Source: Anas platyrhynchos (taxonomy: Eukaryota; Chordata; Aves; Anseriformes; Anatidae). Taken from it: DNA of 64,000 bases. Of the stretch, positions 1 to 61,755 are shown piece after piece. The position numbers and the translations under genes were made by a program. Numbering within the stretch: the first letter of the stretch is position 1; each line of letters starts with the position of its first letter. The stretch lies in assembly GCF_047663525.1 (NCBI RefSeq), contig NC_092593.1, positions 27,802,501 to 27,866,500 of the forward strand, in the 5' to 3' direction. The notes under the pieces were generated by a model. It ran no database searches. It was not told where the DNA came from and saw only the letters and a list, made by a program, of their open reading frames with translations.

Positions 1-3000
1 CCTGACCATTTTTGATGCCATTGGTTTCACTAATCCAACACAAATTCCACACACAAAATTTGTTTTACAATTTACCTGTATCTAGACTTGACATGACTCA
101 GCTGTTCATAAACTATGGTTTGCAGATGTTGTCATTGCCATGCTGTTAAGTGGCCAAGTCAGATAACACGAATGAAAAGGAATTGCCTTCATGTTATGGG
201 AGAGGTGGTACATAGTGATTTGTAAACAGTGTTGGAAGACCACCTACAGATGAACAGAATTGACAGACCTTTGAGGGTCTGAACATGTAGGTGTCAAAGG
301 ACAGTTTGGAGTGTTTCTGGTTCTGGACAAAGAGAGCAAAAAATAAATTGGAAAAGGCTTTTTTTTTTTTTTTTAATGTTAGAAGGGCTAGAAGGATATA
401 CTAACATTCCTTCGTAAGAAATTTTTGCAGAACTAGGACATCACACACTAAGTTGCCACTTACTCCGTAAAAAGCATACATCTGAGAGGCCTTTAGACCA
501 AAACTCACCACTTGCAAAATATTTACCTTACAAAACATTTACTTTAAGAAAATGAACACTCACAGCACAAAGATCAGGAGGCACCGCTGGCCTACAGTTT
601 CAATATACCATACAAAGACAGCAATGCACAGATGACTATTCGTTAACATTTTGGTAGATACTCATAACATTGAGATCTGTCTAGGCACTAAGTATGTCAT
701 CAAGGAGAGCAAAGTGAGATAGCAATTTTAATACTTCTTGGAGAGATTGACTTTTACTCTATGTCAAAAATATTTTTTGCTTTTGAAGAATAAAAGCTTT
801 ATAGAAATTGTGTTGTCAACCTTTACTCTTCATTTCATTCCTGCACGTCCTCCCATAAGACCTTACACACTGTCTTCATGATTGTCCTTTGCAAGATCCC
901 TTTGGACACGGACACTCAGTATTTCTCCTCAAAAATCTTCCAAGTGTTTACAATCATTCCTTTAAAGACTTCTCAGAAATCACATCAAACCACTTCAGAA
1001 AATAAACATATCGTTTATCACATTGGTTAGAAATGGAAGGAGATAGTAAGATGTAATATCTTACACTGGAAAAGAAAACAAACCCACCCACACTTCCTGT
1101 CACATGAAGGGATTTCTGCCTTTCCCTCTTTCTCCCCCCATTTCATACCTTAGTTGTTGCTTGCTGGATAGACCTGCTGGGTAGCTTCTGAGGTAAAAAA
1201 ACAACACAGCCTGTTTTACACAATGTTTTTCATCTGTTAATGAGGCATGCTTATCCCATCACTGCAGATGGGATAGGCTCTAAAGTTTATTCCCAAGAAA
1301 GCTTTGTTTGGAAGGGAAAGGCAGATCAAGGAGGATCTTCTCATCAGAGATCCATGAAGAGTGATGGCTTTTCAAACCCTCATGCTCTGCTACACCACAT
1401 TTTCTGTCCCTAACAGAACACGTTCTTTGTGTCTAATCTTAGAACATATCTGTTTGAATAAGTTTAAGGGAATAAATTGTAGGTTTGCCAACATACAGCC
1501 AATTGAACAGCCAGCTACTATCCACAAACAGAATTAGGAACTCAAGTGGCATGAATAAAAAGAGGTCAGTTTGGCAATATAAAGCCCTAACAGCAGGCAG
1601 GTATTATCCTTATCCCCTTGTTTTCTCAAGTAACAATTGTCCTGTGAAATATGGCGCCCTGATGATCATCCAAGTATGGCCAAGTCAAAAAGCAAAGAAA
1701 AATATTAATTAAAGGAACATATGGACTTAAGATCCAGCAGAGACAAAGAAAATCTGACAGAAGCAAATCTCACCAGTATTTACTTGTGCAGTGAACTCGC
1801 TGCTTTCAACAATATAACAGTTATACACGAAGTATCAGAGGGCCTGAGGGTAAAGGACTCACATGAAAGCTCTAGTAAGTTTGATGGAAGAGACTTGGCA
1901 GGAGACTGAGTGTGTTTGAGGTAGACAGAGCTGAAGTCAGAAGGATGACTGGAGCAGCAAGTTAATTCTGTTGAGAAGAAGAGGTGTTTTCCTTGGTAAC
2001 ATGTAAAGAAAGAGAGGCTACGCTCCTGGTTGCAGCTCAAAGAGGAGCTTCTTCTTGCCATTAGAAAATAAAGACGCGTGTCTCAGACTAGTGGAAGACA
2101 TTGAGTTGCCTTTGGTACTCTCCAAAACTTGAGTGGCTCTGTTGGTTTTGAGGGCAGGACAGGCTTTCCTTTTCTTCCATACATGTAAATTTCCACCATG
2201 ATCTCACCCTATCCACTACTGTCTCTGATACTAGAACTGTGCTGAGCCTTTGTGATGGTCTTCCAACCCCTTTACCAGGTCTAGGACCTCCCCCAACAAA
2301 GCCTTCTCCAACCGTCCCCACAGGCACTCATCTTTCACACTTTCAGGACCTTTTTCCACGTAGACTCCCTGGACTTGTCCTACTTGTTCTCCTTCTGCCC
2401 CAGCAACCACTGCTTTCAAGTAGCCCTTGTATTTCTCCCCTCAAGTCCCCATAACCACAACACAGATAATTTCTTTAAAATAGAAAGTAGTTTACATTTG
2501 AATAGGAGTACTGTACATTAAATTACTATATAAATATATAATATACACATACATATTCAAACATTTACATCTCTAAACTCTGTACAAGCTGCAACAATCT
2601 TCATACCACATGACCAAGTTTGGGTTTTTGAGCAGTGCAAAAAGGACTCATTGATATCACTGGTTTTCATCCAACAGGCTGCTAGCCTTGAATAAGAGCT
2701 ACAGATGTGTGCCTTACTGTCTTCTCTACGTTTTTGCAAAAAAAAATATTTTTGCATGCACATACATAAGCACAGCCTTTCTTGTCAAGCTAACCAATCA
2801 GCCATATGGATAACCAACAATGTGAATAGATTGGAGAATAATTTGTTCATTTACAGTGATGTGGAAGCTCAGGGTTTCTAGGTTTGCAAAATGAACACTT
2901 GAACAAAACAACAAGAAGACAAAGAAAACATCAGAAAAACATCTGCAAATCCAACACAATGTCATAATTAACTACTTTGAACCAAGCTACATAGTTTTCT

Positions 3001-15100: not shown

Positions 15101-18100
15101 CAGGTATAGCACTACAGCTTAAGAACAATGCCAGACATCTCTGTACCTCAGTTGTTTCCTCACTGCATAGACTTGCTCTATTCCCTGAGACACCAGTTCT
15201 CTGATCTTGTCTGCCACTTGAGGATGAAGTCGGGAAGGCAGAATACAATTCTCATCTCTAGCAACTTCTTCCTCCTCCTCAGGAGAAGATGCAGAAAACT
15301 GGGAGGGCGAAGAAGGGAGGCAGGAAGTTTCCATTTCGTGATACTGGTGGGCTTGCTGAGTGGGTAACTGTACATACCACCTGGCAAGAAGGAAGGAGCT
15401 TCTATACGCAATTCTCAAGCAAAGGCAGCAAAATGAATCTCTTGGGGAACAGCCAGACAATCATAAATGACCCAGTTAGAGTGACATAAGTCTTTACAGC
15501 CCCTCAGCTGGAAGATACTGCCCTTTAGAGCTCAGGGTCCTCTGACACCCTTCAGTGAAAAACAAACCGGTTAAATATCCCAATACATACAATTATTTCT
15601 ACTTATTCCCTGCATGGAAACATCTGCTGAAGTTCCACATCTTAGCATTTAACACATTTACCAAGTTAAATAATCCAGAGCCATGAGTCTTACTGACATT
15701 GTGGAATTTATACTATTGATATTAAGCAAGAACCTTAATAAAGTAACTAAGAAAATCTAAATCCAAGCAAGCAAATTATTGCTCTATTTGCTTTATTGGT
15801 CAAGACGAAAAAAATAAATGCAAAGTTCACCTGAGGACACCACCAGCATCTATCGAGTTCTTCTTGAGCATGTTGAATGCTTTCTCCTGCTCCATTCTTA
15901 TGATTTTCTTGTCAATTTTAGGGTCAGTAGGAACTCTGTACTCCAGAAACTTTTGAACCTTTTTAATATAGATCCTTCCAAGGGGAGGATAAAAAAAAAA
16001 AAAAAAGAAAGAAAAAAGAAATTCCTTCAAATACACTTCACCTCCAGGGGGAAGGCAAAATCCCCACCTACTTCATATTGGATATTACTATAGAAAAAAT
16101 TCAAGCAGTGTTGTTCTGGGGGGTGAGGAGCCTCTAAGAGAAATTAAGAGTTTTTAAACAGATAATCAATAGAGAGGGTTGCAGGTAGATGCAGAGAGTC
16201 ACATGTATGGTCCAGGCTGGAAGCCACTCAGCCAGAGTGGTTTTGCATTTCAGCAAAAATCCTCTGCCCCTCAGTAGCATAAAAGCACAACACCATTTCT
16301 GGACAAGCCGGAATTCACGCAGCCTGAAGCATAAGCTGTGTACATACACATCTAACTGCACCCGTCAAAGTACGCACACCCTTAGCTCTGCAAAAAAAAA
16401 AACAAGCATGGCACTAAAACCCAGAAGGATGCCCAAGGATAAGTTTTTTTTTGTAAAGATGACAGTCGGATAAGGAAGAAGTCCTCACCAGTGCTCAGAC
16501 AGAGTGATTCCCACCTGTAGTTCATGGACTAACGTACTGCTATTTTGCAGCTAGGCAACCTATCAAATGTCAGCCTCATTCAGTTTAATAGGACAGCATT
16601 TCCTCCTTCCTTCTATATGTAAATCAACCTCAAGTTATCAAGGAGATAAAGCTAAGAGCCACGCTGCATGACATAAGCTACCCCGCAAACAGCACTGTCA
16701 ATGTTTATGAGATTTATATTTTCTTAGGATGATGGTCAGTAGCTTTGTAGCCAATTCTTACCTTGCTGGACATGTGGCTTTATACAGATGGCCAGAAATC
16801 CTTTCAGGTTCACTGGCTTTTTTGGGCTGGAACCCTTTCCTTCTTGGTCCATACTGGCACTCCATTACAATGGCTCTGCTTCCTGGGAACAAAAAGCAAT
16901 TCACTCTATTTGAGCAACCACAGAAGTTGTTATAGTAAAACAATACCTATGGAATAGACAAGAACTCCAAAAAAGTTATTTCTGCTTAACAGACTTCTTC
17001 AGAAGGCAGTACACTCAATTGTAGCAAGCATTCAAATACAGTGAAAATGCTTTTTTTTTACAGCATGCAAGGAACACAGAGCACTTTAAAAGCGTTTCCC
17101 AAGCCGCTATCATTTCACAATGCTCCTGGTAGATATACAGGGGCAAAAGATTGGCTTCTGACCCGATCAGCAATAGTAATTGACAATATGAGCAGCCTTG
17201 CTAGTTACCAAAGGAGCACAATATGTTGGTAATAAATACAAATAAGAGAAACAGAATCCTCCAAACTAACCAAGAAAATCCACAGCTGAAAGCAAAGGAC
17301 TTTAATTAATACTTCAGACCACGCTGCCCCATAAATTCTTACCTGCAAATCTGACCTACCTTATCAGTTAAATAACACTGCCTCAGTGTGGCATACCCCC
17401 ATTAACACAGACAGGCTCAAACAAAGATTGCTTAGTTCTACATTTCATTCAGATACATGACTTATTCCAATCAGACCACTTACAAAAGGGGTAACGTGCG
17501 TAACAGTGTCTGTGGTCAAGAAGAGAACCTGTATCTGTCCCATATCATGTTGAGCTATCCATTACTTACATTTCATATACACCAGTCCACTGGCAGGGAG
17601 CTGTCTATGCCACAAATGATATAACCAAAAACTTTTTAAGGTATCACAACAGCAACATAAAGTGTTTCCATAAGACACTCAATGATTTAATGCCTGAGAA
17701 CATGACATTATTAGTATATATACACACACATCAGTGCATGTAAAGAGAAGGAAAATTGTGCTTAATAAACATACCTAGCCTTTTCAGATTTTGTTTAAAA
17801 AATTTGAAATCAATTTGCTATGACTGAAAAGACTTCAAGAGCTTTAAGCTAGTCCTTACTAGTATGCATGTCAAACCCAATCTGATAGGGCTCCTGTTTT
17901 ACAAAGGTATTAGCAATATACAATTTTTATTAAAACTAACAATCGAGATTTTATAATTAGTTCATGTTTTATACTATGTAGAAGCTACCCAGCTTCTCCA
18001 CAGCAGAAACACAGCAGGGAAGGCATTACGTTTTGGTTCCACTTACACAGAAGGGATAAGTTCCTTGAGAACAGTACTTTCGTCCTGCACAGTTTAGAAT

Positions 18101-31845: not shown

Positions 31846-33169
31846 GTAAGTACTGCAACCATCACTAGTATTTTAAGAAGTCTTAGTGACGGGATCTTCA
31901 AGAGAGCAATCATCAGGCACTGCAACATAGCTTACTATACTACCATCAGCAGTTCAGTTCCAAAGACAAACAAGATCACTCAGCAAAAGGCAGGCAGGCA
32001 GACCTCATGCTGAGGCAACACCTACAAACCAACTACAACTACACCAGTTCTAGACTAATGTAACTCTCAGGTCTCACATGACTGTGTGCTTCTGCCTTCC
32101 CTCAGTTATGAGGGCTCTTTCTGAGGGCTATGTGCAGGCAGACCCAAAGAGAAGTACTGTCTTCCAAAATCCCAGATCAAGTTATTTTAACGCTGAGGGA
32201 ATTCTACAAGATTTTAGTCTCTCTTCTCTTAGAAGAAAACTGAACTTGAAGAAAACATGTGAGCCCATTTTGATTATAGGCCCATTCCCTTACATTTACA
32301 GACAGGAGTCTTCAGTGCTCACCCATGTTAAAAGAAGAAAAAATATAAACCAAAGCTCGACTAAGTTCATGTTTTCAGCACTGCTGATAGCAACGTGCCT
32401 CATCTCGGCCTCAGTTTACACTTCATGACGGTAAACACACTTGGAAGCCTTGCTAACAATTCTTTCTCAGTTTTCCCTATAATAATTAAGAGGTTTAATA
32501 AAAAGATTTAAAATAATTGCAAAGCTTAACACAACACTCCCTCTGAAAAAGCTGCCTCTGGTGAGACCGCTCTAACAAGCAAACCATTATAAAGGGCATG
32601 AATTACAGTGAAACGTAACGGGGACGAAACTGGAGCAGAGCACTGTCCTCAAGCAGGCAGATGAACTAGCTTAACATTAGCTCTTGCCGGGCTCGAGACT
32701 CAGCTCGCGTCCGCGGTACAGCAGCAGGCGGGTACTGCACGGGGCACACGGAAGGTTTGGGAAGCGCCCGGGTGCTCGGCAGGGCTCAGGGGGACCCCTC
32801 AGGGAACCGCGGGGCAGCTCCGGGGGGCGCGGGGCACTGGGGCTGGGCCCCGCCCGCTGCCGGGGACGCCGCGGAGGGACGGGAGAACTCAGGGCAGAGG
32901 CGAGCCGCAGGTGCCGGCGCCCCCCACCCCGGGGTGCTCGGCTCCCCTCCGCTCGGGGCAGGACCTTCCCCACCGCCGCGGGGCAGGGCCGGCCGCTGCC
33001 TCTCGGCGAGGGGGCGGCGCCCCGTTAGCCCGGCCGCCGCCAGGCTGCCTCCGCCGACCCCCTGCCACCCCTCGCCGCGGGGCGCCGCGCCCCCGCCCCG
33101 CCGCTCTCTCTCCCCCAGCCCGGGGGCGAGGGGAGCCCGGCCCCGACCCCCGGAGCGAGCCCGCCCCAC

Positions 33170-33230
33170 CTCGCCTCAGCTCCCGCCGGCGCCGCCATGG
33201 AGGCCGCCCCTCGGCGCACGCGCGGCGCCC
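33170..33230 (-). other. CARF: Possible CARF noncoding first exon
   Basis: On the minus strand, GCGAG|GTGGGG gives a plausible donor with the exon ending at 33,170. An exon here would start inside the CpG island and overlap the WDR12 5' region, as the human genes are known to overlap slightly. The right limit is a guess. Confidence 0.25.
33214..33223. promoter_or_regulatory. NRF1 binding site core
   Basis: GCGCACGCGC is an exact match to the palindromic NRF1 core GCGCAYGCGC, 140 nt upstream of the WDR12 ATG. NRF1 sites are common in TATA-less bidirectional promoters of growth-related genes. Confidence 0.65.
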
Positions 33231-33322
33231 AGAGGCCGGCAGGGGGCGCGCCGGCAGCAGGGAGGCGGCGCGCGGCCTGGCGGGGGCTGCGGCCGCGTGG
33301 GGCAGGGGCAGGCCGGGCGCTG

Positions 33323-33361
33323 CAGCACCGCCACCAGCAGCAGCAGCACCGCCACCAGCAG
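33323..33361 (+). repeat. Tandem 18-nt duplication abutting the WDR12 start codon
   Basis: The 18-mer cagcaccgccaccagcag occurs at 33,323-33,340 and again, identically, at 33,344-33,361 (period 21), ending two bases before the ATG. It is likely to lie in the 5'UTR and could vary in copy number. Confidence 0.9.
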
Positions 33362-33362
33362 C

Positions 33363-40986
<7,624 letters not shown>

Positions 40987-44300: not shown

Positions 44301-44648
44301 AAATTTCTTAGAATGTTTGAAACGATCCCTGAATGTGAACTAGCAGTCACAGAAAGCTTTATGGAGAAAAATCATATGCCAATTTTTGTTATAGCAGAAT
44401 GTTCCAATAATTAAAATTTCTTATTCAAAAATTCTCCCCTTATCATGCTATTATCTATGGCTCATAAATTTAGACTAGAGAAGTTCTGACATTTAGTCAG
44501 ATGCTGTAAACTACACATGACAGGCAGTTGAGATCACTTAGAAGAGCATCTGGGAAATGCTCACTGACTTAATCATTCCCCTTTAACTGTATCATCTAAT
44601 TATCTATTGCAGTTGTTGAAAAACATTGCAGTTCATTATTTGTACACA
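41346..44648. other. Stretch between WDR12 and the ICA1L remnant
   Basis: AT-rich, with no recognised exon. In mammals the ICA1L promoter and 5' exons lie here. I see no CpG island, which agrees with loss of promoter function. A poly-T run sits at 42,842-42,859. Confidence 0.5.
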
Positions 44649-44824
44649 CACCTCGTGGATTTCCATATACAAGACAGGTCAGCAAAATGCAGCAGAAGTA
44701 TTGGAAATTGAAGTAAACTCACCAAAGAATGGAGATGAATATGTGGTGGCATCTGATGCAAAGCTGGATGTCAAATTAGATTCATTTGTGCACAGCATGA
44801 GGTTTTGTAATTTCCTGTCAGCAG
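44649..44824 (+). pseudogene. ICA1L: ICA1L remnant, N-terminal coding exon
   Basis: Pieces across frames match the family N-terminus: HLVDFHIQD (family DLQDRYAQD), VSKMQQKYWK (VNKMQQKYWE), then after a deletion of about 13 nt NGDEYVVASDAKLDVKLDSF (KEDEHVVASDADLDAKLELF) and HSMR-FCNFLSA. The Gln codon of the TKQ motif is now TAA (44,713-44,715). A further small deletion precedes VSKM. The donor CAG|GTGAAT survives. Confidence 0.88.
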
Positions 44825-47088
44825 GTGAATACTTGGAAGAGGGATAAGGAACAGTGCTTGGTGTTACACAAGATCTTTTTCCCATCTTGCACCAACATGC
44901 AAGTGGTCCTTTTATTGGAGAACTATTTTTTGCTTTTAAAAAATGAAATAAGAATAAGGTTTTACCATTAGGTTTAAAAGCATACACAGACTCTCAATGG
45001 ATAGTCTCTGATAGTTACCCTCCTGCAGTTAAAATGCCAGCTTAAATGCTTCCTAGATCTAAATAGCAGAGATTTAAACAGATTCTGATTTCAGTTACAC
45101 TACTGTAATTTTAGAACACGAGTTAAGACAGTGAAGCGTATCAAAATCAATGGGCTTATAGATTCACAGAGAACTTTACACACAGTCTGGATGTAATTTA
45201 CAGTAATTAATTTGACCTTGTATCTTGATGTAGCTGAAAAGTAAGAGTTAGAACCAGTTTAGGGGGAAAAAAAAAAAAACTGTATTTCAGCCAAACCTTT
45301 TAACTAAGCTTTAGAGCAGAATGGCGAGGGGGAGGAGAAGATGGTTTTCTCCCCTCCTAATCCAATCTATTTAAACAGGGGAATCAAAACAGCAGATGTT
45401 TAAGTATGAAAAGTACTGCCTGAGATGCTGGCACCACAGAATAAACAAGAACTCACAAAAGATGAGAAGGTAAAGGGACTACAATTCCCCCATCTATTTC
45501 AGTTTTACTTATCTGCTGGTATTTAAATGTACAAATCCAGGGTGTCATGCTAAACAGATGCCAAGTTGTTTTGCAAGAAGAACGGTTTATAACTCATGCA
45601 TCATCCCACCATACACCATTCTGAATCTGTGGGGTATTTATAGTATTGCTTGCTAGAGAAAACAAGGGATTATAAGATATAACATTATAATTGATCATTG
45701 TTGTGAATCATATTACACTATCTACCAGAGAAGTTTGTTTTAATGAAAGAAAAATCTATTTCTAATCTTGTCTTAGCTTGCAGCAGTACAGTGTAGCAAC
45801 TGAAAAATATCTTCAGTTTTGGGATGTCTGAATTGTATCTTTTAGATCTTGGCAGACATTTGAATTTAACTATTTTGCTTAGCTGGCTTGAGTATTGCTT
45901 TCACCACTTCCTACTGAGCCTTTCCTCATTATTTTTTAATAATTTTTGACACAGAACTCTATAGGGCTGGTACTGTAAAAAATTAGAGACAAATGAAAGG
46001 CTTTTTTATTTCCTACTACAGTAATATCTTCTTGCCATTTACTTCCCTTATTTTGCTATCCACTCCCTGTTTTATAAGGAAAATATCTAGAATTTTATTC
46101 ATCACAGGAATATCAAGATGAAAGCTGTGAAGTCTTTCCTCCTTTTAAATATATCAGGTGTTGATCTACAGGCTAAAATGACCCTATATAGCACACATTT
46201 TGTGTGTCTAATGCATTGCCACTCTACCCACATATACTACTGATCACATTATGATGCTAGGGCTATTATGTTAAGCAGTATTTGCTTTTGACACACCTTG
46301 TTGTTATTTACACTTATGCTACAGATGTCTCTGCTTTCAGTCCTTCCTCCACTATTAGAACTGCGCACGTGAAAAACACGGGGCAAGCAGAAAGGAAGTG
46401 CAGCTGATGCTCAGGTTTGATAAGCAGCAGTTGTGGTAACTAACAGCAGGGCTTTGTGAACTTCACAGCATGGATGTTACCATTCCTGTACCAAAGAACC
46501 ATCTCCCACAGCCTATGAGCACAGTCAGATGTCTACATTCACGTAGCTTAAGCTACCACCCACTCTCCAGAAATTAATTCTTCCTCAGTGTCTGTGGTCC
46601 TAATTACTTCTGATGTAAGGCACAAATAGCTCAAACCACCAATCTTTTTGTTTAACTGTTGTCTTGATTAAGTTTCGTTCTCTACAAATAGTCAGGCCTG
46701 CATAGTCAATTCAACTCCTCTGTTTTCAGACAAAACATCAAGTTGAAATCTGATTTAGTCTTTGAATGTGATTCTGCCTAACATTGTCCAAAGAAACATT
46801 ACACTGAAAGAAGATCATTGCAATACAAGTGCCCTGATGACCTCTATAAATGTATTAAGTTTAACTTCAGTCTATTTTCTTTTTGTTGCTGGGAAGCCTG
46901 ATGGATTGAGATAAGAGAACGATGCTACATATTAAATTTTATAATTTTAAATGCATGTGGTTTATTGTATGCTCATATAATATGATGTTGTAGTTTCAAC
47001 TTACACTGTTCATAAAACAATTGACATTTCTTTCTGAAGGTTTTTTGTTCCTTTCAGATGGCCTACAGAGATCTCGAAGACTACCGAT

Positions 47089-47247
47089 GAATCACAGAAT
47101 TGTAGGGGTTAGAAGGAACCTCAAGAGATGATCATGTCCAACCCCCCTGCCAAAGCAAGTTCCCTAGAGCAGGTTGCCCAGGTAGGTGTCCAGACAGGCC
47201 TTAAATATCTCCATAGAAGGAGACTCCACAACCTCCCTGGGCAGCCC
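47089..47247 (-). mobile_element. CR1 LINE 3' fragment
   Basis: Reverse-complement CR1: gaatcacagaattgtagggg, then gaaggaacctcaagagatga, tccaacccccctgccaaa, ending in cctccctgggcagcc. About 160 bp, inside a former ICA1L intron. Confidence 0.93.
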
Positions 47248-47330
47248 GTACTGATAGGGACTTTATGGTACTATATGCAGTGACAAATTTATTACTGTTT
47301 GTGGCTTTTCTTACTTTTGTCCTTTTTAAT

Positions 47331-47395
47331 GCAAGGGGATTAGACAAGGTGATCTTTAAGGTCCCTTCCAACCCATTCCATTCTATGATTCTATG
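47331..47395 (+). mobile_element. CR1 LINE 3' fragment, opposite orientation
   Basis: gcaaggggattagacaaggtg, gatctttaaggtcccttcca, ending in ccattctatgattctatg, the CR1 3' terminus. It lies 83 bp from the minus-strand copy, so the two 3' ends face outwards. Confidence 0.92.
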
Positions 47396-48077
47396 TTCAC
47401 TCATGTCTTCAGCTTTTTGAATTATATACATATAGTTATCTTAGAACTAATTACAGTTACATCTTTAACACCAAGTATAATTTCTACTATTCTAAAATAA
47501 AGGATATGCACTTCCCTCATAAATATGCTTAGTCATTTGTTTGCTATGTTATACACAATACATTTCTCATCCTCAGAGAACAAAACACAATACCGTACCA
47601 CAAGCAAATAATTATTGCCAGTATTTCAATTTTTCTGAAGCTTTTAAAAGTCTCAAGAAAAATAATAGAAAAAACTTGCCCTTTTTAAAATTCCTGGAAA
47701 TGTTACATTGCTAGGAATGCCTTCTTAAGCCCCAGAGTTCAATTAAAGGCATTTAAGTAGAAATCTAGCAACAAATACCGCATATATAAATATGGTATAA
47801 TATTCTACTTGATCTTCCTTTGTAGCATGTCTATATATCCCTTAGCAATCCACACACACCACACCCCCATTAGTTTCACATGAAGTCTGACTTGGATATA
47901 AGTGACTCATCTTTTTTTTTTTTTTTAAATTAATTCCTCCCCCAACTCCACATACACTACTTCTAACCACAAACGTTGTCAAAATCTGAAGGCCTTTTTA
48001 TTAATCTTATCAGTTTGAATAATGTGCTTGTTTTGCCACCCCCAAAGCGTCCATAATAAAAAGTCAATAAATTGGAA

Positions 48078-48203
48078 TTGTCACACATTATTTTTCAATT
48101 ACTTCTTTTTATAGCCATACCTGAGGAAGAAAAGCTGAAACTCTTACAATGTTTCAGGCAGAGCAGAATACAAGTGAAGCTGGAAAAGGGATGGATGTCA
48201 AGG
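48078..48203 (+). pseudogene. ICA1L: ICA1L remnant, exon with the EEENELG motif
   Basis: HII--FQLLLFIAIPEEE corresponds to KIIEKYQLRLNVISEEE (two codons missing, one gained). After a frameshift, FQAEQNTSEAGKGMDV corresponds to ICA1L FQAERDATQAGKMMDA. The donor AGG|GTAAGA is intact. The FQAE and MD residues point to ICA1L, not ICA1. Confidence 0.85.
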
Positions 48204-48938
48204 GTAAGATCCTCTTTACTTCTGCCTAGCAAAGGTTTTCAGCTTTATCATTTTTAATATTCCCCATTCACTTTACATTCACTGCTTTTAATTCAATAAA
48301 AGATGTAATTCAGAGAACATGCATGTACTTGGTAAAAAGATACTGGAAGGGACATGTGTCAGAAGTGACAGCTATTTTATCCCTGAATAGAAAACCACTT
48401 TCCTAAGCTCTGATGTATGTAGAGTAGTGATAACAGGTAGCTCTAAACACCTCTCTCTTCCCCACCAGCTTATGTTCTTTGGGCTATGTGCCTGGTCTAT
48501 TCCCTTCCCATACATCCTTCTCCTGTTTAGATTAGGTTCACGTCTGCTTCAGACAGAGCATTAATATAAACACGTCCTGTAATAAAACCAATTCATAATT
48601 TCAGACTGATATGTTAGCACTTAGCAAAGCCCTGCACAATTTCGTAGAAGGAAGCTTACTGCTAAAGTGCTTGGGCCACAATGAGTAATATCTGTTGTTT
48701 GTTACACACTGAAACTATTATTGGACATTTTCAGCCAACAGATTGAAGGTGAGTTCAATGCTGCTGCTGGGTACACAGACAAACATCTTGCTATCAAAAC
48801 CAGATCCTTCAACCGCTTGTCTGCTTGACTTGAAAGTTGGCAAGATTTATTATTACTATATGACATTTTAATTCTATTTATATTCAGAATGTTAGGAAAT
48901 TAAAAAAAAAAAAGTACCTTAACCCTTCATATTCCCAG

Positions 48939-49015
48939 AGGTTTACTCTGCTTCTTAACACAGAAGGTAGAGAGGAAAAATGGGCATTGCCTAAGCTGTG
49001 CATTTGCAGTGTTTG
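48939..49015 (+). pseudogene. ICA1L: ICA1L remnant, weak match to the KALCSSAKQR exon
   Basis: After the acceptor ATTCCCAG, the frame GLLCFLTQKV resembles GKALCSSAKQR, in the right order and at the right place. The rest of the exon is barely alignable. It could be chance. Confidence 0.35.
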
Positions 49016-49420
49016 GGTACACTGTAGGCCATGAGCATGCCAACAGTTTCCTATTATTGCTGTAAATCAGGGTTGCTTTCATAAAACACGCATCACTGGT
49101 ACTTCTACATTTTTGGGACATATCAATAAATCAACTTCATGTACCAACTCATAGCTCAGCATTTATTACTACTGTATATTTATTTGTTGGTACATGTTTT
49201 TTGTCATGTGATAAGAAGGCAATGAAGGGCAGCACAAGCAAGCGCTGAGAAACATGAACACTAAAAATGTAACTATACTGTAGTTACAATAAGCTCTCTT
49301 CTCCCAGTTTTTCCCCAAAACATTTTGCTTACTTGGGCTCTTACATATTTTATTCCCCCCCCCATTTCTTACCTTCAGACTGGCCTTGTCTCAACTTGGG
49401 CATGACCTACCAAAAATCAG

Positions 49421-49550
49421 CTTCAAAGCTATGTATATGATGCCATTTGGACCAAGCTTGCATTGAATAGAGAGGAGCACTGCTGTGGCTAGAAGATAAA
49501 TCCCAGGAGCTGTATCCTGACAATTGCAAGCAAATGGGGAATTCCAAAAA
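49421..49550 (+). pseudogene. ICA1L: ICA1L remnant, exon with the RGALLWMKD motif
   Basis: LDQACIE-stop-RGALLWLEDK then SQELYPDNCKQMGNSKK corresponds codon by codon to MEQARTEYRGALLWMKDV and SQELDPDTLKQMEKFRK. The Tyr codon is TAG at 49,468-49,470. The upstream part is shortened. Acceptor AAATCAG and donor dinucleotide GT (49,551-49,552) are kept. This is the clearest fragment. Confidence 0.92.
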
Positions 49551-50192
49551 GTACTTACATATCCATACAAGCACTGTCTACAGTTGACAACGTACTGGTT
49601 GCCAACAAGTACTTCTGCAGTTCACCGTGACTTAAGTAGAGACAAAAACAAGTAATCTTTGTACATTTTTTAGCTACAGCATCTCATGAGCAGGCTCATA
49701 AAACAAAACAAAACAAAAGCTTAAGAACTCACTCCACACCTGGGGAACAAAAAACTATTGTTCCCTGTATTTGTTATTAAAGCAGAAAAATGCACTTAAC
49801 ACCACAAAGTCAGCATATGAAAAAGGAAACATGAAAAAACTTTCATACTTGTTTAGATAGATGCTTGTCTTCCAAAAGTATCTCCGTCTTCCACCTCTCC
49901 AGCAACTGCTCTTAAGTACTTTTACTGAGCAATCAAAAGGGTGAGGGCAAACTTAATTGTTTTCTGTCTGAAACACTCTCCTTCAGGATGACACTAGTTA
50001 TACTCAAAGCACACAAAGTTAAAATTCTGTAAAAGAAAATGGAAGTCAAAATTACACATCTATTGCTAGGACACTGTACAATATTACTTTAATCTCTTGA
50101 ATATATTTTCACCTTTAGGAAGTGAAGAAATTGTTAATATTCAGTATTTCTAAATTTTTGTCCATCAGTTGTTCAATTGATGTGGGATTTAG

Positions 50193-50275
50193 ATACAGAT
50201 GCAAGTAAGGACTACCAAGGATAAGTTTGAGACACCAAAGGGGCATCTATTACAAGGTGAACCTACTTTAAGCCA
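50193..50275 (+). pseudogene. ICA1L: ICA1L remnant, exon with the VQMQVRNSK motif
   Basis: IQMQVRTTKDKFETPK matches VQMQVRNSKASFDKLK. The following bases align with MDVCQKVDLLGAS after a 2-nt deletion. Acceptor GATTTAG and donor CA|GTAAG are retained. Confidence 0.88.
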
Positions 50276-50936
50276 GTAAGTATAATTTGTTTTCACATTC
50301 CCTGGCAGTCAATCAGGTGTCTACAGTAGCACCAAAATCTCTCCTGCTCATCTGCCTTCCCCCATCTTCTATGACTGAGCATAGAATTTAGGATGGTAGG
50401 CTCAGACTGCCTGCTTTTTATAAGCTTCCTGACATTCAGGTATGTCTTTTGTCCAGAACAACCACTTCGTAACAGCAGTCTTGCATCTTTCAGTCATTCT
50501 TTTCAAAACAAGAAGAGCAAATATGGTTATTTAAGTATATTAAAATTTCTTTTGAGCTTGAAAAATCAAAGCTGAAGTATTCTGAAAAGTATACTCGGAG
50601 ACAGAATAAGACCGAGCCCTATTCCTCGTCCTCCTCCAAGCAAATAAAAGAGCATGCTCATTCACCCTTGAATCTTCCAATTTTCCTTCTATCCAAAGTC
50701 ACAAGCGTAATTATCTGGACAAAACTACTGTATGCTCAGTATTGAGCCTTCCAGTTTTAGAATATATAAGGCTTTTTGAAGAAATGTCTGTAAGAATTGG
50801 TTAAGCCTTTCAAGCTTGAGATCTCATACCTTTTTTTTTTTTTTTTTTTAAGTAAATTGAATAGAAAGCCAACTGTTTGAGATCCAGACAGTACAGAACC
50901 AGATAGTTAAACAATAGTGCAAATAGCAGAAAACTT

Positions 50937-51065
50937 TAAATGTGTTCAATGACCTCTATGTCCCTCTAAGTAACTTTTCTATATTTCTGCAAAATAGCTC
51001 AGCTCACATTCAAAATCCTTGAGCAACTTATGGACTTGCATCCATATTATTCTGTTGCACAGGAG
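50937..51065 (+). pseudogene. ICA1L: ICA1L remnant, exon with the CNMLSHS..FHPYDF motifs
   Basis: CSMTSMS matches CNMLSHS. After a small deletion with a stop, VTFLYFCK-IAQLTFK matches RTLLGFWKKTARMMSQ. ILEQLMDLHPYYSVAQ then matches IHEACIGFHPYDFVAL codon by codon. The donor GAG|GTAAAT is intact. The left limit is approximate. Confidence 0.83.
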
Positions 51066-54000
51066 GTAAATTCCTTTTGTACTAAGACAAGGGATTTCTT
51101 ACAGACACCAAGTTTCAAACCAGGAGAACAATCACTTACCTAGAATTAAACAACTGAAATGTGTTCAGTATGTTCAAAGTCATTCCCTATGTTCATATGC
51201 CAATCCATAAAGCATGCAATATTTGCCCTTCATCTCCCTGAAGTTTTCCTTTTAAATCTCCAGACATATTGTATATTAGAGATCCATGTATAAAGAGTGT
51301 TTTTTTTTTTTTATAGAATTAATACAATTTCTCATGAAGTTAACTAATGTATTGAAATTAGTAAATGATTATACAGCACTGTAACTTAGAAATGCAATCT
51401 TCTTCCTAAGTGCAACCAAAATTTTGGTATATTGTCATCTTCCTGCAGAAATATAACCAGTCACAGTGTTATACATAACCAGAACTTCTGTAAATTTCTA
51501 AACATGCTACTGAAATTATATTTACAAACAGTTAGAAGAACATTATTATTAAACGGCTTTCACTGTACAAGTCAATGAATTGGACAAATGAAATAATAGG
51601 TCAACATGTTCCTAACATTAGTTTTCCTTAGCCATTACAGAAGTCTCCCTTAAACAACCCAACTGGGGAATATGGACAGAGGAAAGATGATGTTCCAAGG
51701 AATCTCAATAAGCAAGCACAAAAAAAAGCTGGAGTCACGAAAAAGTCAAATGTTGTGTACATGTTTTATTAGAAGGAAAACATCTGCTTCATAGAATTAA
51801 AAAAAAATAAAGCAACAATAAGACAGTTTGCCAATTACCAATCTTTTCCTTCAGCTTGCAGTCTTCCTTTTTAATAATAGTTGTATTATTAGTACCTTAT
51901 TTTTTCACATTATAATAGTTTTAAAATTTACCATTGCTGGTAGATTGTCATGTGTGTAAACGAGGACGTGTCCATTAATTTATATCTACCAAATAAAAAT
52001 CAGGGTTACATACCTTCCAAGTATCAATCTCCTTTCCATGACATCAGTACAAGAAATCAGGTTTATTTCCACTGAAACAGAGTTGGGCAAATACAAAATG
52101 AGCAGAAGGGAGATGTAAGCTCTCCTTGTCTGCACAGCAGTTAGATCACTGAGATGGCAACACATCCTGTATCACACAAAGCACTATCTGATCAATTCTT
52201 TCTTACTCAGTTCAGGTTAGTCTCATTAAAGAAAATTCTATCACAACTGAAACTGGAATAGGCAGTACATGTGAATGTATAGCAATTTTGTCTTTCAAGA
52301 AATTTGACTGAATATTTCAGAAATTAACAGTCACCTAACAGGTAAAAAAAAAAAAATAAAAATGCCAGAAGTACATTGACCAGTTTCAATTTGTCCCCAT
52401 TACATATATCACAAGCTACCTGAACACTCTTGGTTCCCTTGCACCGGGACCAATTCCACTGCATACAAAGGGTCTTGCTTTCTGAATGAATTTCATCCTC
52501 AGTGATACAGCTCATTAACAAAGAAAGAAATGCAATTACGTGTTTTTTGTCGTTGCTGTTGTTGTTTTTTATAATTATAAAACACAGATTTTATCACAGG
52601 CTTAATATTTTACCTGGTTAACTTAATTACTAGGAACAAGAAAATTAAAACTTCAGTTGTTAAACACTTGACAGGCATATAAGATAATTTCTGTATAGGC
52701 TTGAATGCTACAGTTTAAGGTCCAGCACCACAGTGATGTGGTTCAGGATGAGTGCTGTGTATCTTGGACTGCCTCACCAGAAATGCCAAGCACTTCCCTC
52801 TAGATGCAGAGGCTCAGAATTGCTGTTTCCAGGCCTTGGAACTGCAAAGCCCATGATTTATTGTTCCTCCTCTAGAGGCTTTCAAAGTAACTGTCTTTGG
52901 TCCTCTTCTTAAGTGGACAGCTGTACAAGAGAGGTGAAACCCCAACACCAGCAATGGAGCAGTGAGGGTTGGCACACAAAAAAATGGTCTCTGTTTTCAC
53001 CCAATCCATGTTTGGGAAGAAGACAAACAGTTTTGTTTTTATTATTTTGATAGCAGCTGTTGGAAAGCTGCTCAGCAGTTTGGAATGTCATAAGTAGTCC
53101 CCTTGGAGCTGGATTAGAAAGAGATGGAGAAAGCCAAAAGCACTAAGCAGATAGCTTTGTAACCATGGAATAAAACTTATTGCATATTTACAAAACTATA
53201 TTCTCTGACATGTATAGCTCACTTTCAAATGATGCAAGCAGACCCTGAACTAAACTTTTTTTTTTTTTTTTAAACTCTTATAAAATCTGCTTTCACTAGT
53301 AACTATGTAAGATATATACTGGTAAAACATCTCTAAAAATAAATCTGCCAGTCTTACTGGAGGGGAAGCTACAACAGATGCAAGCCAACAAAAATAATGA
53401 TTTTTCATTCCACTTAAAGTTCAGGAAAAATATCCATGTTTGCCAGATACAAAAGAAAACTGATGGGAATGGAAAATATTTTCATGCTGAAAGGATATTT
53501 TAAACAATGGAGATTCAAAGTCAAATCTCTCATTATCCTTTTGAAAGGAACTTTCTGAAATATAACACCAAATTTTTGCAACTATGGTATAGCCTTTTTT
53601 AACTTTAACAATATCGCAGCAAACACTTTGTCTACCCACTTATATATTATTATTTCTTTAAGAAATAATGATGGGGCTGACTAACCCCATGCATACACAT
53701 TTGTTTGGGAATTTCTTCTGGCCTGCTGGCTTTAATTTTCAGCTCCTCCAGTAGTGTTTTTTCCAACTAGGGCCTATTTTTATTCCTGGAGTTATTTCAG
53801 AAGTTCAAAAGACAGAAGTTCAAGGAAGAAACAACGTGCAGATATGCAAGCATGATGATTCTCATCTTCTAAGCCCAGAACAAGGCAAAAAAAAAATCAG
53901 GAAACAACAACAACAAAAAGCTTTAAATACCCATACTCAAGTTATTCTGACATTTTGTGTTACTTCTCTTCAGAAGAGAGGGCCCTCTGAAGACCCTTTT

Positions 54001-54972
54001 TACAGATAGAGCAGTTTTTCGCATTATATCAACGTTAACAAATACCATAGCGTTAACGTAGACAGCAACAAGAAGTATCTAGAAATCATTCTTCCTCACC
54101 TGCAGCCCAGATGGTTCAAAAAAAAAAAACTCAACAGTTTTGTACTGAAACATGTTAACATTGTTCCCGTATTCGATACAAATTGATGCAGGAGGGAATG
54201 TTTCAGCTGGCTAGATCATGAGTTGCACCAACTGAGAAGCTAGCACATATTTTTCACATGCTTCGTAGTCAGGGGTGTATGTACGATAACTTTTTACAAG
54301 AGGGGAACAGCTAGCTAACACCTTACAGCCATACCTAATATTAGGATGAATCTAACTATGGTTTAAAATGTCCCTATACAGCTAAAGAGAGCTCTGTGTC
54401 CTCTGTTTAGTGGTCAACAAATGAGTTCTACACCTCTTGCAGAATTAGTTAGTTCAAAGCATGAGAAAAATTCCTAAAGGCTCTGAACTTGTTAAAATGA
54501 GAATATGCATTCATTTAATAAGAAATGCCATCTGAAATCCAGTGACACAACCAAATGAAAACTTCCTAACTTATCAAAATTAACTTTTCTTCCTGAAAGT
54601 AGGTTATACTGCATTTTTTTGAACAATTTTATGGATAGAGACGTTACATTCCACTGTCCTACTTTACTCATTGTTAAGTTTTCCAGGAGAGAAAACAACT
54701 AGAGAACTAAAGGAAGTGAAGTAAAATTCTGCCATGTATTAACGATGAGAAAATTGGCTAAAGAGGACAAGCAGTCAATTCTCAACTTATTCTAATAATA
54801 TTCCGTGAATCTGGACTTGCAACAGTATTATTCAACATACTCATAATTTGCAGATGAGATTAGAATGTGAGGAACAAGTACGTGCAGATGACAGGGTTAT
54901 TCTGTTTATATTGGGGTTTAGATGTTTGTTTGTTCTTGTAGAAGAAGCCTAAGAAACCGTAGAGAACATAGT

Positions 54973-54993
54973 AAAAAAAAAAAAAAAAAAAAA
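54973..54993. repeat. Poly-A tract (21 nt)
   Basis: Uninterrupted A run; no element body identified. Confidence 0.85.
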
Positions 54994-55880
54994 GCAAAGA
55001 ACACCATATCACACACAGATGCAAGCCAGTGCTGTCCAGAAAAAATGACTACGTGCTACCATAAGAAATCAACTACAAACAGGATACTTTCAAATTTGGA
55101 AAAGAGGACAGAAGTATTTACAGTAAAACCAAAATAAGTAGTTTTCCAGACATTCTCAGTTCCTCAGGCTGCTTACTCAAACTAAGCTTTATAATGCCAA
55201 GTTAACAAGCATTCTACAGCAGGCTGTCGGAGAAAAACAAGCAGCTGCAGCACAGTAATTCACCTCAGAGACCACCTGATTATCAGGTGATTTTAAAAAC
55301 ACAGATGTTCTGCCTATTTTCCCCTGACCTGTTCTTTCTGCACAGTCCTGTACTTCTGTTGATGAGAAAGCTATCAGAAACCAGGCATGTTACTCACCAC
55401 TGGACAGCTTATTAACAAGACACATAGGAAGAGACTATTACTGAATTGCTTAAGGATGAAATATGACGGGGAGAAATTAAAAACATCAGAGGAGAAAATA
55501 AAATACACCTCTACATCTTTATGACTTGTACAGTCTTTCAAGCACAATCCTAACTAAGTTCACCTTCTTAGATGAACATGGTACACTTTTGCCTTCTTTT
55601 GTATATCAATTTCCTACAAGATAGGAATTTGGACATGTCATACTGTGGTTAGTGGAAACCGTACACAGAAAAGATTATATGCAGAGCCTGAAACCTCAAT
55701 GAAGAAAACAAAGTTACCTTTGCTTCTAGATCGTATATTTCATATTTTGGACAAATTCTTCTTCCAACAGCAGTGCAAATCAAGAGTTAGCGTATTCAGT
55801 GCTGTAATGGGAAGACTTATTCTAAATTAGGCAATAAAAATAGGGAAATTTCAAGGCATGCAAGGTGCATTACAGGCTCT

Positions 55881-55921
55881 AAAAACAAACAAACAAAAAA
55901 CAAAAACAAAAACAAAAAAAC
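55881..55921. repeat. (AAAAC)n low-complexity tract
   Basis: Repeats of AAAC and AAAAAC over about 40 bp. Confidence 0.85.
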
Positions 55922-56955
55922 AACCACCCTTCATTTCCTTTTCTTCTTTAAGTTTCAAATTAGATATCTCATTCCTGGATCCCTCACTAAATCCTGACTT
56001 CTTTCAGTACAGAAATATCACCCAAAATGAAAATACATTTAAGTCTTCAAGGTAGGCAGCCATCTTAGGAAAGCATGACAATTTTCTCAAGCTTCCTATT
56101 TTCACAGTGTGCTGAAAATTTCAAGCCTGAAAGTCTACAAAATATAATAGGTCCACAATTCCTATTTGTGCAAAAGACCAGGTTGTACTTTCACTGAAAA
56201 CAAGACTCTCATAGCAAAATTATTTAGCCTAGAATTACACTAATGTTGCTTGGGACAAATCTATATTACCAAGCAATCATATTTTACAATAGAACATGCA
56301 CCTTTCAGCCTGTAAGTGCTGGGAGTTATTTAGTCAAAACATTAAATAAATTCAGTTGCTGCAGATGGAGAAACTACTCAAGTCACCACACAATGTGAAA
56401 CTAATGCATCACATGGGACAGAGGCATGGACCTCAGTTTCAAGAGGTCCTCTTGGTATCAAGAGGACTTGCCCTGTTTTCTCCAGTGTTGCTGATGTCTA
56501 CTAACTCTTTAAGAACAGTTGGAGAACTATAATAACAATATCCAATTTTCTGAAAAACTGCAAAATAAACCAACAAGTGACCTCCAGCCCTACTGACCGT
56601 TCGGATTCCCACCGCACTTGAGAATATAGCACAAATTTCTTTTCTCTCTTTCAGAGGTCTGCTGCATTTCACAATTCCAAATGAAACCACTAGATGCCAC
56701 ATTAGATGGCATGCTACACTCTTGATACAGGACGAGCGTTTATTCTATACTTTGCATGCTCTTAAGTTCCAGTAGTGTCAGAAAATGTGTCAATAAGACA
56801 AAAAGAGTAACTAACACTCTTATCATACAGTGTTTGATACTGGCTTGCGCTGATGGGCTCATGTTACAGAACTTGTGCTGAGAGAGGGAGAAAATGTTTA
56901 AGCAGATTGTGTTCCGTATTGAATTATGCTTTTTGTTGTGTTTTTTTTTTTTGTT

Positions 56956-56960
<5 letters not shown>

Positions 56961-56992
<32 letters not shown>
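56961..56992. repeat. (GT)16 microsatellite
   Basis: Sixteen perfect GT units preceded by a poly-T/TTTG stretch, 115 bp before the last ICA1L remnant exon. Probably polymorphic. Confidence 0.95.
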
Positions 56993-56996
<4 letters not shown>

Positions 56997-57106
56997 AATG
57001 CAAAGTTTCTACTTCCAGAGACCCTTAATTCTAGATGACTTGTAATATACTTTAAGTTGTATTCAGTTCATGTTGCAATTCTATCTCTCATATCATTTCA
57101 TGTATT

Positions 57107-57200
57107 GATCAACTCAAGTCAGGCCAGCATTTTTGCCAATCTGGATGTCTTTTCAAATCCAGATGCCAGTGGATATCCAGATGAACTCCATAATGCTTAA
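57107..57200 (+). pseudogene. ICA1L: ICA1L remnant, last coding exon
   Basis: SIFANLDVFSNPDASG then YPDELHNA-stop matches NLFADLDPLSNPDAIG and HSDDELLNA-stop; TAA is at 57,198-57,200. The preceding DMSAW motif is damaged by small indels. The stop codon is at exactly the family position. Confidence 0.9.
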
Positions 57201-59374
57201 TTAGAGCTACACAAGGGGAATAATTTTTTTATTATTATTAATTTTGTTACATTGGTCCTCACAACAGGCTAATTTAATTTTACCATTATTGAGAGTGATT
57301 AAAATCCTACTCTAAGCATACATTGTCATGTGGCATGATGTTCCAAGCATTTAAATTCTAAGGAGAACAGCATTAACTCTAATACCTCATTCTTGGGACA
57401 CCTGGGGGCTGTTTGAAAGTCTATTAAGTTTGTAAGGTTCAACACAGAAAAGATTTGCGTTCTGATGTATTAGAAACTAGATCTAGCTAATTACTTTTTA
57501 TCCTGCAGCCTTCCAAAAATAAGATCCCTAGGGTTACCAGGCAAATACTAGTTCCAGTAAAATTCTCTAGGGCATACAAAAGATTCTATTTTACCTTCAA
57601 GGAAATCACATGCTTTGGACTCATACCTCTGAGACAGCTGAAATATATTTAGGACATAACAGTGGATAGGATGATGGTGTCATTTCCTAACACCGAGGAA
57701 GCCATGACTTTTCATTCTCAACTGCACTTTGAAAGCTTCATAATTGTTCTGCTATCTATCTGTAATCTCACAAGACATTTTTGGGCAATGAAGGAGAGAC
57801 TGAGAGCACAGGTTCCACACTTCCTACCACAGTTAGAAACATGTATCCAGTGTGCTAAAAATGAGGGCACTTGGGAACCCTGTTTTTAAAATCTTGATTT
57901 TGCCCAAGAAACAAAAAATGCAGGTTAGGCCTCAATCGCTCTTTTGTCAATTTTCCTAGTACGAGTTAACATGGGTCATGTTCTGCCTTAACTTGTAATT
58001 AATTTCTTGCTACAAGAAAAATAGCATCAATCCCTTGTGTGTTCAGGTAAGCCTTAGGCCATGGAGAATTCCACCACAGGACAGTTTGAACATCTCTTTC
58101 CATTTATGCAGACTCTAGTTGCTCATGCGTTTCAGATCCTGTCAGTTCTGATCACACTCCTGGGGCGTTTTAAAGGCTTTTTTAATTGGGGTCATAGCTC
58201 TTAAGAAGTTCTATAACACAACTGAAGGTGCTGTGCTAGAAGCAAATAAAAATGAAATAAAAATGTAGGTTGGTATCACCTTAAACAAGCAATGCAACCA
58301 AAGAAACATTTGTCAAACTATGGTCTGTGACCAGCTGCATTTGATTGCTGTCTAGAGGTTGCAGTTTAAAATCAGAATCACACCATCCTGTGACTCCTGA
58401 ACTAAATGACCTACCGCTCTCAATGAATTGGGCTTAAGGTTTTGGATGGATATTGGCTATTTGGGATGGCAACTGTCACATACCTGTAAAAGAATGCTGC
58501 CATCCATCCTACTCTCAGGGTAAATACATACCCTTGCAGTTCTATTTGAAGAAATGCAGTAAAACTTACCAAACAGCTCCCAGTGCAATTTCATGAGCTG
58601 AAGATGTGACTTAAACTTGGATCAGAAAACATTAAGAAATGTTTATTTTCTGTGTGGGGAAAGGGAGTTGTTTTATACACTCTGCAGGAACATGCTGCTA
58701 TTTAATCTCCTTTTAAGAGGTTATTATCTACAAGTCATAAAAAGACTAAGAATGGCCTAGATTTCTTTTTTAAAAAACACTGCTCAGACTAGTTTATAGT
58801 TTCCCACATTATGTTAACTGTATTTGCTGCATCATTTATGAATCATTTTACCTGCAAATTGTAAACAAAATTCTACCATAGGTCTTCATCAACCCATCAA
58901 ATACAGCACTGAACTCTGAACATATCTTGCAGCTGAGTAGTACTTCTGTAAATGCTGTACACAGGAACAGTATTTTACGTCACGATTCTGCAGAAGCCAT
59001 GCAGAAGATCTGGCCTAGCCCAGGATTTAGACTTTTTGTTAGTTTGACCAGAAGTGCAGAGAGCATAGATTGTCTTCTGCCTGACACACAGCCAGATGAA
59101 TTCTGGAAATGCTCACTGTTCACCAAAGCTTACATGTATACAGGAGATGTGAAAACCTCTCTAACAGTCTTTTCCATCGAAAGTGAGGTGTCTTTATGTT
59201 GGTCTGCTAAACTTTTACAGTTAGCAAAAGCATCCACAGTGTACTGTGTAACAGAGTTCCTCAATGAATAGCTTAATCAGACCACTTACAAACCTAAGCT
59301 CAGAAGTGTAGGAATTAATGAACAGTGTTCTATTTGTCTTGCAGTAATTAGCTTTTAATCTAATACTGCTGTGC

Positions 59375-61659: not shown

Positions 61660-61755
61660 TAGTGGGAGGTGTCCCTGTCCATGGCGGATGGTGGTGGTGG
61701 ACTTAGATGGTCTTTAAGGTCCTTTGCAACCCAAATCATTCTATGCTTCTGTGGT
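61660..61755 (+). mobile_element. CR1 LINE 3' fragment
   Basis: ctagtgggaggtgtccctg, ggtggacttagatggtctt, aaggtcctttgcaaccc and attctatgcttctgtgg follow the CR1 3' end, diverged. Confidence 0.88.

What the first reader, a model, noticed from the sequence alone, without database searches (positions are those of the whole stretch)
44649..57200. A dead ICA1L gene fossil downstream of WDR12
Six clear fragments and one weak one match successive segments of the ICA1/ICA1L protein, in order, on the plus strand, at the ICA1L syntenic site. The coding sequence has nonsense codons (TAA 44,713; TAG 49,468), deletions and frameshifts. Because introns persist, it is not a retrocopy. This implies lineage loss of a BAR-domain vesicle-traffic gene, leaving only its paralogue ICA1 to cover the function.
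Basis: partly seen in the sequence, partly recalled or inferred. Interest (0 to 1): 0.88.

Follow-up and report, generated by a model that had tools for sequence, protein, structure and literature searches.

The report
Decayed ICA1L gene beside intact WDR12
Next to a working WDR12 gene, in what looks like a bird genome, lie the broken but still intron-split remains of ICA1L, a gene that mice need to build the sperm acrosome, probably dead for tens of millions of years or more.

Summary
Seven pieces between 44,648 and 57,197 (+ strand) match successive parts of mammalian ICA1L and are the top seven tblastn rows for each of six ICA1L proteins. The best collinear chain scores 202-231 bits; 200 shuffled windows reach at most 113-136. 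An eighth piece near 51.0 kb is probable.

Splice signals remain at several exon edges, introns persist and the native stop survives. The frame is broken by TAA 44,714, TAG 48,227, TAG 49,468, TAA 50,269 and frameshifts in at least three exons. CARF (-) and intact WDR12 (+) flank it as in mammals (orientation recalled).

Of 105 conserved residues 67 are kept, about 0.21 neutral substitutions per site since death; three stops in 150 codons fit neutrality.

Best reading: an old unitary pseudogene of ICA1L. Not shown: absence of an intact copy elsewhere (the genome search did not complete), the species, or how widely the loss is shared. The kind of event is known; my searches found no report of this one.

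The parts
44648..44817 (+). Exon A of the fossil (ICA1L residues about 6-66): TAA 44,714-44,716 at a short deletion, two frameshifts (about 44,714 and 44,724)
   Evidence: tblastn; frame-aware alignment; stop bases
48115..48234 (+). Exon B (residues about 79-120): acceptor TTTTTATAG before, GT after; frameshift near 48,147; TAG 48,227-48,229
   Evidence: the exact edges are inferred from splice motifs and codon phase
49379..49550 (+). Exon C (firm from 49,447, residues 152-186): acceptor CCTTCAG before, GT after; TAG 49,468-49,470 at the Tyr codon of EYRG
   Evidence: part before 49,447 is weak; edges inferred
50193..50316 (+). Exon D (residues 187-228): AG before, GT after; frameshift near 50,241; TAA 50,269-50,271
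   Evidence: the edge after residue 228 coincides with an insertion in an echidna isoform
50943..51065 (+). Probable exon E (residues about 230-262), followed by GTAAAT
   Evidence: 1, 14 and 25 of 300 shuffles equal it for three queries; seventh profile hit at 2.5 bits; donor bases
57114..57200 (+). Last exon, C-terminal end SIFANLDVFSNPDASGYPDELHNA with the native TAA 57,198-57,200
   Evidence: 0 of 300 shuffles for each of three queries
33363..40986 (+). Intact neighbour WDR12, 13 coding exons, 12 GT-AG introns
   Evidence: spliced translation without internal stop; WD40 matches in 2 of 3 tested ORFs
15122..15460 (-). ORF carrying part of CARF (ALS2CR8), neighbour on the far side of WDR12
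   Evidence: PF15299, E=3e-17

Best explanation
The stretch 44.6-57.2 kb is an old unitary pseudogene of ICA1L. The gene died in place by nonsense changes and small deletions, and its exons have drifted neutrally since. Shown: collinear ICA1L pieces at the expected place beside intact WDR12, introns still present, stops and frameshifts in several exons, decay that fits neutrality. Inferred: no ICA1L BAR-domain protein is made from this locus; the ICA1L-PICK1 partnership known from mice is absent here or taken over by ICA1; the loss is old enough to be shared by many birds.
For: Top seven tblastn rows collinear for 6 of 6 ICA1L proteins. Chain 202-231 bits against at most 113-136 in 200 shuffles and 79-81 in the reversed window. 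Splice-like AG/GT at several block edges and the native stop. Stops and frameshifts. Neighbours CARF and intact WDR12. ICA1L above ICA1 in 115 of 115 proteins that cover all blocks (402-451 against 386). Conserved-site retention 67 of 105 and 3 stops where 2.7-4.7 are expected.
Against: Residues about 262-440 leave no detectable trace. In two blocks ICA1 scores as well as or better than the median ICA1L, and ICA1 identity (84 of 150) lies within the 82-93 of the printed ICA1L rows. No nucleotide comparison with a sauropsid ICA1L was possible. Whole genome not searched.
Confidence: 0.85

Rival explanations
1. Dead duplicate: an intact ICA1L lies elsewhere in this genome and only the copy at the original site decayed.
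For: The own genome could not be searched (12 unanswered attempts), so it is not excluded.
Against: The fossil sits at the place expected of the original gene, which would require the moved copy to be the survivor. The listed rows of three protein searches name only mammals, but lists were capped at 120 and seems to need about 8 shared words, so this is weak.
Confidence: 0.1
2. The locus still works in a reduced form: a non-coding RNA or a short product from surviving pieces.
For: No transcript data were available; splice signals remain at several edges.
Against: Conserved sites are lost at a rate that fits neutral drift, stops are as many as neutrality predicts; no Rfam family in the window.
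Confidence: 0.03
3. The pieces are chance matches, or come from ICA1 rather than ICA1L.
For: Single pieces are short; Pfam recognises only 1 of 6 pieces and below its cut-off; two blocks do not separate ICA1 from ICA1L.
Against: Shuffled and reversed controls; block 93-121 scores a median of 74 for ICA1L against 43 for ICA1; gene order.
Confidence: 0.02

Closest known systems
ICA1L of mammals (Pfam PF06456 Arfaptin plus PF04629)
   Same: Six firm exon-like pieces and a probable seventh in the same order, C-terminal end and native stop; 82-93 of 150 aligned codons identical in the printed rows
   Different: Stops, frameshifts, deletions; residues about 262-440 not detectable
ICA1 (ICA69), the paralogue
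   Same: Same overall protein plan; 84 of 150 codons identical to recalled human ICA1
   Different: Lower total score, 386 against 402-451, mainly from block 93-121
Unitary pseudogenes and bird gene losses in general (for example the missing-gene set of Lovell et al. 2014, PMC4290089)
   Same: In-place loss of a gene kept in mammals
   Different: ICA1L, WDR12, FAM117B and CARF are not named in that paper's main text (supplements not seen); here the remains are still readable rather than a whole block missing

Membership tests
ICA1L orthologue (as a fossil) | Collinear similarity to ICA1L above chance | tested here: met
ICA1L orthologue (as a fossil) | Closer to ICA1L than to ICA1 | tested here: met
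ICA1L orthologue (as a fossil) | Same neighbours and strand as mammalian ICA1L | tested here: met
   CARF and WDR12 present; strand order in human recalled; FAM117B flank not seen
Unitary pseudogene | Disabling lesions in the coding frame | tested here: met
Unitary pseudogene | No selection on the protein since | tested here: met
   67 of 105 conserved residues retained; 3 stops, 2.7-4.7 expected; no comparison among related birds
Unitary pseudogene | No working copy elsewhere in the genome | not tested
   The genome search unanswered in 12 tries
Processed pseudogene (retrocopy) | Introns absent | tested here: not met
   Gaps of about 3.3, 1.1, 0.6 and 0.65 kb between successive exons with splice-like motifs

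The most novel reading that the evidence does not exclude
ICA1L was lost early in bird evolution or before, so that all or most living birds form the acrosome and run PICK1-dependent vesicle traffic without a gene whose loss gives mice round-headed sperm; ICA1 or another BAR protein took over.
Probability: 0.55. Interest if true: 0.6.

Novelty: new member of a known kind. Interest (0 to 1): 0.5.

Why it matters
In mice, sperm without Ica1l show features of globozoospermia and ICA1L is a BAR-domain partner of PICK1 (review PMC5260884, passages seen; it cites He et al. 2015, which I did not read). A probable bird that lost the gene in place is a natural knockout: it asks how an acrosome forms without it and whether ICA1 changed to compensate. 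The readable fossil also lets the loss be dated by shared stops among birds.

Tried and rejected
Chance: rejected by shuffles and reversed controls. Retrocopy: rejected by introns. ICA1 fragment: rejected on score, not on identity alone. Bad assembly: unlikely, since WDR12 reads through intact and lesions are spread over several exons. Pfam is too weak for such short pieces: 1 of 6 gave Arfaptin, E=0.013, below the cut-off. Protein Data Bank: 0 hits for one piece, only arfaptin-2 for recalled whole ICA1L. Rfam: 0 matches.

Search for bird or reptile ICA1L proteins: the rows listed name only mammals; unnamed rows are 2 of 120 (2393 hits), 1 of 120 (273 hits) and 4 of 120 (123 hits of 164 candidates). 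Because lists are capped and seems to need about 8 shared words, this does not show absence.

Paper searches: ICA1L with gene loss and birds, 0 papers; with chicken 7; with avian 3; with pseudogene and vertebrates 0; with birds 2; by title and opening of abstract none of the 12 listings is about birds. Control: FAM117B with chicken 10, at least one a chicken study, so ICA1L's silence in chicken papers is only a mild hint. Searches were badly chosen; their listings (20 and 3 shown) hold no ICA1L or alias. Supplements could not be searched.

Failed scripts: (wrong option, seen); one search gave void zeros and was redone; the last ICA1 block was off by one residue and was corrected.

Full report
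What was checked. The finding claims that a dead ICA1L gene lies downstream of WDR12. A recalled human ICA1L served as the query of a protein search; it gave 2393 hits, 120 of them listed, the best 97% identical to it. With six of these real mammal proteins, tblastn finds the same seven pieces in its top seven rows, in order and on the + strand: 44,648 or 44,678-44,713; 44,725-44,802; 48,152-48,241; 49,447-49,551; 50,193-50,255; 50,254-50,316; 57,114-57,197.

Is it more than chance? A profile of 24 ICA1L proteins was run over all six frames of the window. Its best seven hits lie in 44.6-57.2 kb on the + strand, in protein order, at 30.1 to 2.5 bits; the best hit elsewhere has 1.3 bits and the reversed-protein profile reaches 1.4. 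These seven include the weak piece at 50,943 and leave out 50,193-50,255. The best collinear tblastn chain within 15 kb scores 230.7, 202.4 and 225.7 bits for opossum, platypus and elephant; 200 block-wise dinucleotide shuffles reach at most 136.4, 113.1 and 132.5 (medians 82.4, 78.1, 95.9), the reversed window 79-81. The opossum and elephant chains each include one weak hit (55,851 and 52,739) that the other queries do not share and that I take as noise. Local tests: the last exon is equalled by 0 of 300 shuffles for each of three queries; the piece near 51.0 kb by 1, 14 and 25 of 300; a separate exon for residues 58-80, residues 121-152, 262-340 and 330-440 are equalled by 55 or more of 300.

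Anatomy. Frame-aware alignment and the bases at the edges give: exon A 44,648-44,817, with TAA 44,714-44,716 and two frameshifts beside a short deletion; exon B about 48,115-48,234, acceptor TTTTTATAG, GT after it, frameshift near 48,147, TAG 48,227; exon C about 49,379-49,550, acceptor CCTTCAG, GT after it, TAG 49,468 at the tyrosine of EYRG; exon D 50,193-50,316 between AG and GT, frameshift near 50,241, TAA 50,269; probable exon E ending at 51,065 before GTAAAT; last exon 57,114-57,197 followed by the native TAA. The edges are my inference from splice motifs and codon phase. One of them, after residue 228, coincides with an insertion in an echidna isoform. Gaps of about 3.3, 1.1, 0.6 and 0.65 kb separate exons A to E, so this is no retrocopy; the 6 kb before the last exon has lost the variable region beyond recognition.

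ICA1L or ICA1? Over seven ungapped blocks (150 codons) the 115 ICA1L proteins that cover every block score 402-451; recalled human ICA1 scores 386 after correction of a one-residue slip. The margin comes mainly from block 93-121 (median 74 against 43). In blocks 16-27 and 208-228 ICA1 equals or slightly beats the median ICA1L, and in plain identity ICA1 (84 of 150) lies within the range of the printed ICA1L rows (82-93). Gene order decides further for ICA1L.

Neighbours. WDR12 at 33,363-40,986 reads through 13 exons with twelve GT-AG introns and no internal stop; 2 of 3 tested ORFs in it match WD40. An ORF at 15,122-15,460 on the minus strand carries the CARF domain PF15299 (E=3e-17). A human study names ICA1L, CARF, NBEAL1, FAM117B and WDR12 for one locus (PMC7320185, passages); that ICA1L follows WDR12 on the same strand in human is recalled. 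FAM117B was not found in the 4 minus-strand ORFs tested beyond 56 kb.

How dead, how old? At sites at least 98% conserved among 164 mammalian ICA1L proteins, 67 of 105 residues are retained; at the other sites 21 of 45. Under a simple neutral model this means about 0.21 substitutions per site (0.14-0.29). The same model expects 2.7-4.7 stops in the 150 codons; 3 are seen. With recalled avian neutral rates of 1.2-2.5 per billion years the central value is 84-175 Myr, full range 56-242. Only alignable pieces were counted, so the age leans low; the model ignores CpG effects and takes mammals as the ancestral state.

Which genome? Repeats at 35,785-35,900, 47,080-47,400 and 61,705-61,753 resemble avian CR1 elements (sequences; the family name is recalled). 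The species was not identified.

How far is the loss shared? Not settled. The age estimate suggests that the loss is shared by many birds; that is inference.

Function. Ica1l-null mouse sperm show globozoospermia features and ICA1L binds PICK1 (PMC5260884, passages); ICA1L is listed among proacrosomal vesicle transport proteins (PMC11398861, passages); a review describes ICA69 as a BAR partner of PICK1 and says that ICA69 and ICA1L appear to antagonise PICK1 (PMC9031029, passages). The likely consequence is that this lineage makes the acrosome with ICA1 alone or with neither; this is inference.

Verdict. A real, old, in-place ICA1L pseudogene; unitary status is likely but untested. The kind of event is ordinary; the gene and its acrosome role make it worth a comparative follow-up. 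My searches of the held open-access library and of the main text of one paper on missing bird genes (PMC4290089) found no report of it; subscription journals and supplements are not covered.

Noticed in passing
window 47080-47400, 35785-35900, 61705-61753: Interspersed repeats that look like avian CR1 elements (name recalled); one lies between exons A and B of the fossil. Two of them share a 49-base stretch at 82%.
   Followed up: partly
window 15122-15460 (-) and 32700-33700: CARF lies on the minus strand and WDR12 starts in a G+C-rich stretch between them, which suggests a shared head-to-head promoter.
   Followed up: no
window 58882-59268: A 129-codon open stretch on the + strand in otherwise apparently non-coding sequence; no Pfam match.
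   Followed up: partly
P0125 (echidna ICA1L) near residues 228-279: An insertion of about 50 residues exactly at an inferred exon junction, perhaps an extra exon or an annotation error.
   Followed up: no
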